From the NCBI GenBank assembly GCA_021160245.1, contig JAGHCW010000135.1, positions 1 through 21,947 of the forward strand: a stretch of 21,947 bases of DNA. The letters run 5' to 3'. Both the position numbers and the translations under genes were made by a program. This DNA comes from a bacterium (GTDB lineage: Bacteria > B130-G9). Positions 1-680 of the stretch are shown here, one piece after another (position 1 is the stretch's first letter; each line of letters begins with the position of its first letter). The notes beneath the pieces are model-generated. The model did no database searches, was not told where the DNA came from, and saw only the letters and a list, made by a program, of their open reading frames with translations.

Positions 1-251
1 AACATACCCCGCCCGTTAGTGAGTTCCTCTATGTGGTCTATGCTACCGATATTGGCGGTATTACCGCTCCCACTTCTGTCGCTTGCGATCTCCCATTTCT
101 CAGAGATAAAAAACTGGAAGTGCCTAATGACCGACGTTATGGAGTTCATCTGTTCCATTTGGAGTACTCTTGTTTCCTCAAGTCTTGGGTCACCTGTTCT
201 TGAATAGATTATCCCTAAACAGAAATGGGCCATATATTCAGAATATGGGAA
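1..251 (-). pseudogene. C-terminal continuation of the EcoRV-like endonuclease, downstream of the in-frame stop (runs off the window)
   Basis: Directly after the TAA at 252-254, the same minus-strand frame stays open to the window edge and still reads as EcoRV. FPYSEYMAHFCLGIIYSR aligns with YPFDQYIAHWIIGYVYTR, and SEKWEIAS aligns with QDKWVIAG. GSGNTANIGSI aligns with the EcoRV recognition loop GSGNTTNIGSI (residues 182 onward), which contacts the GATATC site. The stop sits exactly where one residue (Val in EcoRV) is expected, with no frameshift, so a single base change can explain the break. The remaining 40 or so C-terminal residues lie outside the window. I read this as a recently broken gene. 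An assembly error is the main alternative; a split two-chain enzyme or stop readthrough is less likely. Confidence 0.8.
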
Positions 252-680
252 TTAAATGTTTTTTGTGCTGTTGCGATCTATGAAGTATTGGCCGTGCGAT
301 CCCAGGGTGAATCCATTGCAGAATCCTGGATAGTCCTTCAACCGATAGGTTGTTTTGATATCTAAAGCGAATTTTACACGCGCGTCCTGTTTCGAAACAA
401 ACGATAGGTCAGGATAGTAATTCTGGTGGTCAGCGAGCACGATATAGTAGCCAGCTTGGTTGGCGAACTCCAGCAATTTGGGGAAAAGATGGATTTCAAT
501 GATTTTGGAGACGATCTTTGTGTCAGCCGATATCGTGTAGAGGTTCTTATAGACGTCAATGAACCCCTTTATCGTCCATTGCTTGTCATCGGCTTCCACA
601 TAAGAAATCAAACTCTCGACAAAAGCCGAGAGGCTCGCCTTGAACTCAGCCTTCATGGCATCCTTATTCTCTGTCGGCAT
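252..680 (-). CDS. EcoRV-family type II restriction endonuclease, N-terminal part ending at an in-frame TAA
   Basis: This 142-residue frame aligns with the first half of the EcoRV endonuclease (245 residues, cuts GATATC), compared with the EcoRV sequence from memory. The catalytic set is intact: E62, D91 (in NYYPD) and D107/K109 (in ALDIKTTY) match EcoRV E45, D74, D90 and K92, all at a constant offset of 17. DTK before the first glutamate and QN before the YPD motif also match. The conserved FTLG...STKNI stretch follows, and the frame then stops with TAA at 252-254, where EcoRV continues. The ATG at 680 has an AGGGGAG Shine-Dalgarno about 7 nt upstream. Taken alone, the product has the active-site half but lacks the recognition loop and C-terminal subdomain, so it is unlikely to cut DNA. 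The rest of the gene is in the same frame at 1-251. No companion methyltransferase lies in the window. Homology is very likely; whether any protein is functional is open. Confidence 0.85.
   Translation of the reverse strand: MPTENKDAMKAEFKASLSAFVESLISYVEADDKQWTIKGFIDVYKNLYTISADTKIVSKIIEIHLFPKLLEFANQAGYYIVLADHQNYYPDLSFVSKQDARVKFALDIKTTYRLKDYPGFCNGFTLGSHGQYFIDRNSTKNI

What the first reader, a model, noticed from the sequence alone, without database searches (positions are those of the whole stretch)
1..680. EcoRV-type endonuclease gene broken by a single in-frame TAA
Sequence: E62, D91, D107 and K109 match the EcoRV catalytic set at a constant offset. After the TAA at 252-254 the same frame continues with YMAH, KWEIA and GSGNTANIGSI, the last matching the EcoRV recognition loop. 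The stop replaces exactly one residue. Knowledge: EcoRV homologues are uncommon outside a few bacteria. Inference: a recent nonsense mutation in a GATATC-specific nuclease, possibly tolerated or favoured because its methylase is lost or weak.
Basis: partly seen in the sequence, partly recalled or inferred. Interest (0 to 1): 0.75.

Follow-up and report, generated by a model that had tools for sequence, protein, structure and literature searches.

The report
EcoRV-type nuclease gene, stopped; methylase intact
A bacterial DNA-cutting gene of the EcoRV family carries one premature stop codon while the protective methylase gene beside it is intact, and a related genome has lost the cutter almost completely but kept the methylase, so this looks like an ordinary restriction system caught decaying into a lone methylase.

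Summary
On the minus strand, 680-252 encodes the N-terminal 142 residues of an EcoRV-family nuclease (PF09233, E 4e-56). After one TAA (254-252) the same frame continues to the contig edge (PF09233, E 2.7e-28). The gene's end lies on contig C31 of the same genome, joined by a 44-base overlap with one mismatch. The stopped column is glutamine in 82 of 82 intact close relatives, and the catalytic residues E62, D91, D107 and K109 are invariant in them. A read-through model matches solved EcoRV (Z 20.7). In a genome of the same family, the orthologous methylase (70% identical, same position beside leuS) is intact, the nuclease is gone, and a 14-codon fossil of it remains upstream. EcoRV homologues are common (at least 550 loci), so the rarity claim is wrong. 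Best reading: nonsense inactivation of the nuclease in a vertically inherited R-M locus, with the methylase kept. An assembly or strain artefact is not excluded without reads. Ordinary in kind; mildly useful as a traced case.

The parts
252..680 (-). EcoRV-family nuclease gene, N-terminal 142 codons, holding the whole catalytic set
   Evidence: ORF; PF09233 E 4e-56; phmmer to EcoRV chains E 4e-14
252..254 (-). In-frame TAA at codon 143; glutamine in all 82 intact close homologues
3..251 (-). Same frame after the stop, up to the contig edge: the part with the EcoRV recognition loop; the gene continues on contig C31 (L003:45-230)
   Evidence: PF09233 E 2.7e-28 (for 3-233); contig overlap
231..233 (-). 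ATG, seventh codon after the stop; a possible restart codon, with no Shine-Dalgarno-like sequence seen in front of it
   Evidence: sequence
354..362 (-). D107-I-K109 codons (EcoRV D90 and K92)
408..410 (-). D91 codon (EcoRV D74)
495..497 (-). E62 codon (EcoRV E45)
42..71 (-). GSGNTANIGS, counterpart of the EcoRV recognition loop
1..44 (-). Overlap with the start of contig C31 (one mismatch, A versus G, Thr versus Ala), which carries the gene's end and the methyltransferase gene

Best explanation
This is a chromosomal type II R-M locus of the EcoRV kind (nuclease gene followed by an overlapping D12 adenine methyltransferase gene), present beside leuS since before this genome split from a relative in another genus of its family. 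In this genome the nuclease gene has been inactivated by one nonsense codon at an otherwise invariant glutamine. The predicted product is a 142-aa fragment that keeps the catalytic residues but lacks the recognition loop and the rest of the fold, so it should not cut DNA. The methyltransferase gene is intact and is inferred to go on methylating GATATC. Losing the nuclease first is survivable, whereas losing the methylase first would expose the chromosome. In the related genome G001 the process has gone further: the nuclease is reduced to a 14-codon fossil and the methylase stands alone. Shown: the stop, the family membership, the intact methylase gene, the fossil, the orthology of the locus. 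Inferred: loss of cutting, methylase activity and specificity, and that the stop is fixed rather than one strain's variant.
For: Both halves are EcoRV family, and the read-through model fits EcoRV structures at Z 20.7, rmsd 2.6 over 203 residues. The stop column is Gln in 82/82. The methyltransferase is intact: PF02086 E 1.6e-43, TIGR00571 over cut-off, PADLOC type II MTase E 1e-115. A nuclease-then-methylase order with the methylase starting at or within the nuclease's end is seen in 78 of 82 scorable relatives. G001: no PF09233 match; orthologous methylase, 70% identical and intact, convergent with leuS at a 57-base gap (66 in the window's genome); fossil RLEDYPGFCNGFTL, 13 of 14 identical to the window, same strand, upstream of the methylase, E 7e-6, 34.7 bits against at most 26.9 in 189 shuffles. 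The three methylases of this family form one clade, support 99/98. Methylase pN 0.19 against pS 0.79. Broken nuclease with intact methylase recurs in L085, L087 and L060. About 96% of the rest of the window lies in uninterrupted ORFs, so general base quality looks good.
Against: No reads. The gene lies at a contig end, and the 44-base overlap with C31 already holds one mismatch, so at least one base of this gene is polymorphic or miscalled. Nothing shows that the methylase is expressed or methylates GATATC. GATATC is not depleted (991 sites in 3.43 Mb), which neither supports nor excludes past restriction.
Confidence: 0.75

Rival explanations
1. The stop is an assembly or consensus error, or belongs to only one strain of a mixed population; the living cells mostly carry an intact EcoRV-type R-M system.
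For: The gene sits at the broken ends of two contigs, and their 44-base overlap has a mismatch that changes an amino acid. There is only one lesion, and every catalytic residue and the recognition loop are intact.
Against: All the large ORFs of the window are uninterrupted, covering about 96% of 681-21947, so random errors are rare here. The part after the stop is the most diverged, for its N-part, of 83 sequences, a weak sign of relaxed constraint. A relative has really lost the nuclease.
Confidence: 0.2
2. The two halves are made as separate chains (translation restarts at the ATG at 233-231) and assemble into a working split nuclease, or the N-terminal fragment keeps a role of its own.
For: An in-frame ATG is the seventh codon after the stop. 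The break falls in a stretch that the model shows mainly as loop, between helix 130-134 and strand 151-161. The N-part is as conserved as usual, while the C-part is somewhat more diverged.
Against: No Shine-Dalgarno-like sequence before the ATG. No relative seen here is split at this place. In the related genome the nuclease was simply lost. The excess divergence of the C-part is slight (3 unusual residues in 40 conserved columns).
Confidence: 0.04

Closest known systems
EcoRV R-M system (E. coli plasmid pLG13 and relatives)
   Same: Same nuclease family (PF09233), catalytic residues, recognition-loop motif and fold; a DNA adenine methylase as partner
   Different: About 33-35% identity; EcoRV on pLG13 has its methylase divergent with an HTH regulator gene between, whereas here the methylase follows the nuclease and overlaps it; the nuclease here has a stop
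EcoRV-family R-M pairs of plasmids pSMS3-1 (Antarctobacter) and pRMAR01 (Rhodothermus)
   Same: Nuclease over 60% identical in the N-part; same order, nuclease then overlapping Dam-family methylase
   Different: Intact nuclease; on plasmids
Solitary (orphan) methyltransferases derived from R-M systems (discussed in PMC4176335, PMC6471742)
   Same: Methylase intact with the nuclease broken here or gone (G001)
   Different: Here the nuclease reading frame is still whole but for one codon; the methylase is not yet alone

Membership tests
EcoRV-family type II restriction endonuclease (PF09233) | Profile match over the gathering score | tested here: met
   190.6 and 99.5 bits for the two halves, cut-off 25
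EcoRV-family type II restriction endonuclease (PF09233) | Catalytic set E45, D74, D90, K92 of EcoRV | tested here: met
   E62, D91, D107, K109 aligned and invariant
EcoRV-family type II restriction endonuclease (PF09233) | EcoRV fold | tested here: met
   Read-through model (contig part, 226 aa): pLDDT 89, Z 20.7 to EcoRV
EcoRV-family type II restriction endonuclease (PF09233) | Uninterrupted reading frame giving an active enzyme | tested here: not met
   TAA at codon 143: a broken member by descent; activity itself not testable
EcoRV-family type II restriction endonuclease (PF09233) | Cleavage of GATATC | not testable with these tools
   Only the recognition-loop motif GSGNTANIGS is shared
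Type II R-M system | Cognate methyltransferase gene next to the nuclease gene | tested here: met
   L003:221-1138 overlaps the nuclease's end by 10 bases, contigs joined by a 44-base overlap
Solitary methyltransferase | Methylase active without its nuclease | not testable with these tools
   Gene intact; activity unknown

The most novel reading that the evidence does not exclude
The nonsense codon is tolerated because translation restarts at the ATG at 233-231 and the two chains form a split EcoRV, or because the N-terminal fragment alone has a kept role such as binding DNA or regulating the methylase.
Probability: 0.04. Interest if true: 0.55.

Novelty: new member of a known kind. Interest (0 to 1): 0.3.

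Why it matters
How solitary methylases arise is disputed: a survey of 43 pan-genomes concluded that they rarely come from decay of R-M systems in place (PMC4176335), while an earlier survey, as cited in PMC6471742, saw degraded nuclease genes beside them. Here one locus beside leuS shows two stages in one bacterial family, a single nonsense codon in one genome and a 14-codon fossil with an intact methylase in the other, so decay in place can be followed directly. It is one example, not a general answer.

Tried and rejected
Stop-codon reassignment: rejected, since leuS and other intact genes end in TAA. GATATC avoidance as a trace of past restriction: none seen (991 sites in 3.43 Mb; relatives 750, 1487 and 397); the tool's reversed-pattern control CTATAG is a poor yardstick because CTAG is often rare. 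Relaxed constraint after the stop: only a hint (lowest of 83, z -2.4; 3 of 40 conserved columns changed, as bad or worse in 15% of relatives). A second copy of the nuclease or the methylase in the genome: none but a distant D12 gene (31% identical). Synteny of the gene upstream of the nuclease with G001: no significant match. In G002 the methylase starts at a contig end, so its nuclease cannot be judged; in G003 no orthologous methylase was found. The organism's name could not be determined.

Full report
Observation. The minus-strand frame starting at 680 runs to TAA at 254-252 (142 aa) and stays open from there to the contig edge. hmmscan places the two pieces at positions 2-116 and 125-199 of the same Pfam family, EcoRV (E 4e-56 and 2.7e-28), and phmmer finds EcoRV chains with both. 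E62, D91, D107 and K109 take the places of EcoRV E45, D74, D90 and K92; GSGNTANIGS takes that of the recognition loop. In 82 intact close homologues from public genomes, plasmids and one viral contig, the four catalytic residues are invariant and the stopped column is always glutamine.

Fold. The contig part, read through for folding only, models with pLDDT 89 and pTM 0.87. It matches EcoRV structures at Z 20.7, rmsd 2.6 over 203 residues, well above SwaI (11.8) and HincII (9.3).

What lies beyond the window. The window is the whole of contig C33. Its first 44 bases overlap the start of contig C31 in reverse, with one mismatch. C31 supplies the nuclease's last codons and, overlapping them by 10 bases, a 305-aa D12-class adenine methyltransferase gene: PF02086 E 1.6e-43, Dam-family TIGR00571 over its cut-off, PADLOC type II MTase E 1e-115. 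The methylase is therefore not lost, and shows no sign of degradation in sequence. Of 84 relatives compared, 82 had a scorable nuclease frame and all 82 have the methylase downstream on the same strand; in 78 of these it starts at or within the nuclease's end.

How common. EcoRV homologues are not rare.

History of the locus. The methylase gene is convergent with leuS. In G001, same family but another genus, leuS is followed in the same way by an intact methylase 70% identical to this one, with gaps of 66 and 57 bases. G001 has no EcoRV-family match. On the methylase's strand, about 1.6 kb upstream of it, RLEDYPGFCNGFTL matches residues 113-126 of the window's nuclease at 13 of 14 positions (tblastn E 7e-6; blastn E 1.4e-5); 189 shuffles gave at most 26.9 bits against its 34.7. 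Stops and unrelated sequence surround it, and a Reg_prop-type gene lies between it and the methylase. The methylases of G000, G001 and G002 form a clade with support 99/98 among 87 sequences. Between G000 and G001 the methylase shows pN 0.19 and pS 0.79, so it has been under purifying selection for at least part of that time. This is what one expects if the R-M pair sat here in their common ancestor and the nuclease decayed while the methylase stayed.

Age of the stop. After the stop, 144 codons contain no further stop. With 4% of random substitutions in them making a stop, even 0.17 neutral substitutions per site would leave no new stop one time in twenty, so absence of further stops is only a loose bound on age. 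The C-part is the most diverged for its N-part among 83 sequences (z -2.4), but unusual residues at conserved columns are few. The stop is young or moderately young; no closer dating is possible.

Other broken cases. Of the 80 public loci, L085 and L087 have an in-frame stop and L060 a frameshift in the nuclease with an intact methylase; L049 and L061 have nuclease frames that end early, and L049's methylase is also damaged. No clear case of an intact nuclease with a broken methylase was seen. The sample was chosen by similarity to the nuclease, so this is not a rate.

Mechanism. The 142-aa product lacks the recognition loop and a large part of the core, so it should not cut; this is inferred. 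The order of loss, nuclease before methylase, is the survivable one (established knowledge of R-M systems). Whether the stop lowers translation of the overlapping methylase gene is unknown; the in-frame ATG at the seventh codon after it could restore coupling. The main open rival is an assembly or strain artefact: the gene is at a contig end and the overlap has a mismatch, while the rest of the window reads cleanly.

Standing. In kind this is known: decaying R-M systems and solitary methylases are described. Whether solitary methylases commonly arise by decay in place is debated (PMC4176335; PMC6471742). This locus is one traced example.

Noticed in passing
L005:403-2277 (-), genome G004: A single 624-aa ORF joins an EcoRV-family nuclease (PF09233, E 3e-99) to a D12 adenine methyltransferase (PF02086, E 7e-14): a one-chain EcoRV-type R-M fusion.
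   Followed up: partly
L003:3837-5654 (-), contig C31 of the window's genome: A GmrSD-type (PF03235 plus PF07510) gene lies between leuS and the microcompartment-like and aldolase-like genes; in G001 and G003 leuS follows these genes directly, so it looks like an insertion next to the R-M locus.
   Followed up: partly
window 1-44 and L003:1-44: The contig overlap has one mismatch that changes Thr to Ala in the nuclease: strain variation or a contig-end error.
   Followed up: partly
L085:3193, L087:3760, L060 near 3691: Other EcoRV-family nuclease genes broken by a stop or a frameshift with the methylase intact.
   Followed up: partly
L092 (IMG/VR contig): A complete EcoRV-type nuclease plus methylase pair on a contig classed as viral, 56% identical to the window's nuclease.
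   Followed up: no
L129, upstream of leuS in G002: Short repeated stretches that translate as MGFQPMNEQ or SFMGWKPLPL, looking like an interspersed repeat family.
   Followed up: no
window 357-362 and 529-534: The nuclease gene itself holds two GATATC sites.
   Followed up: no
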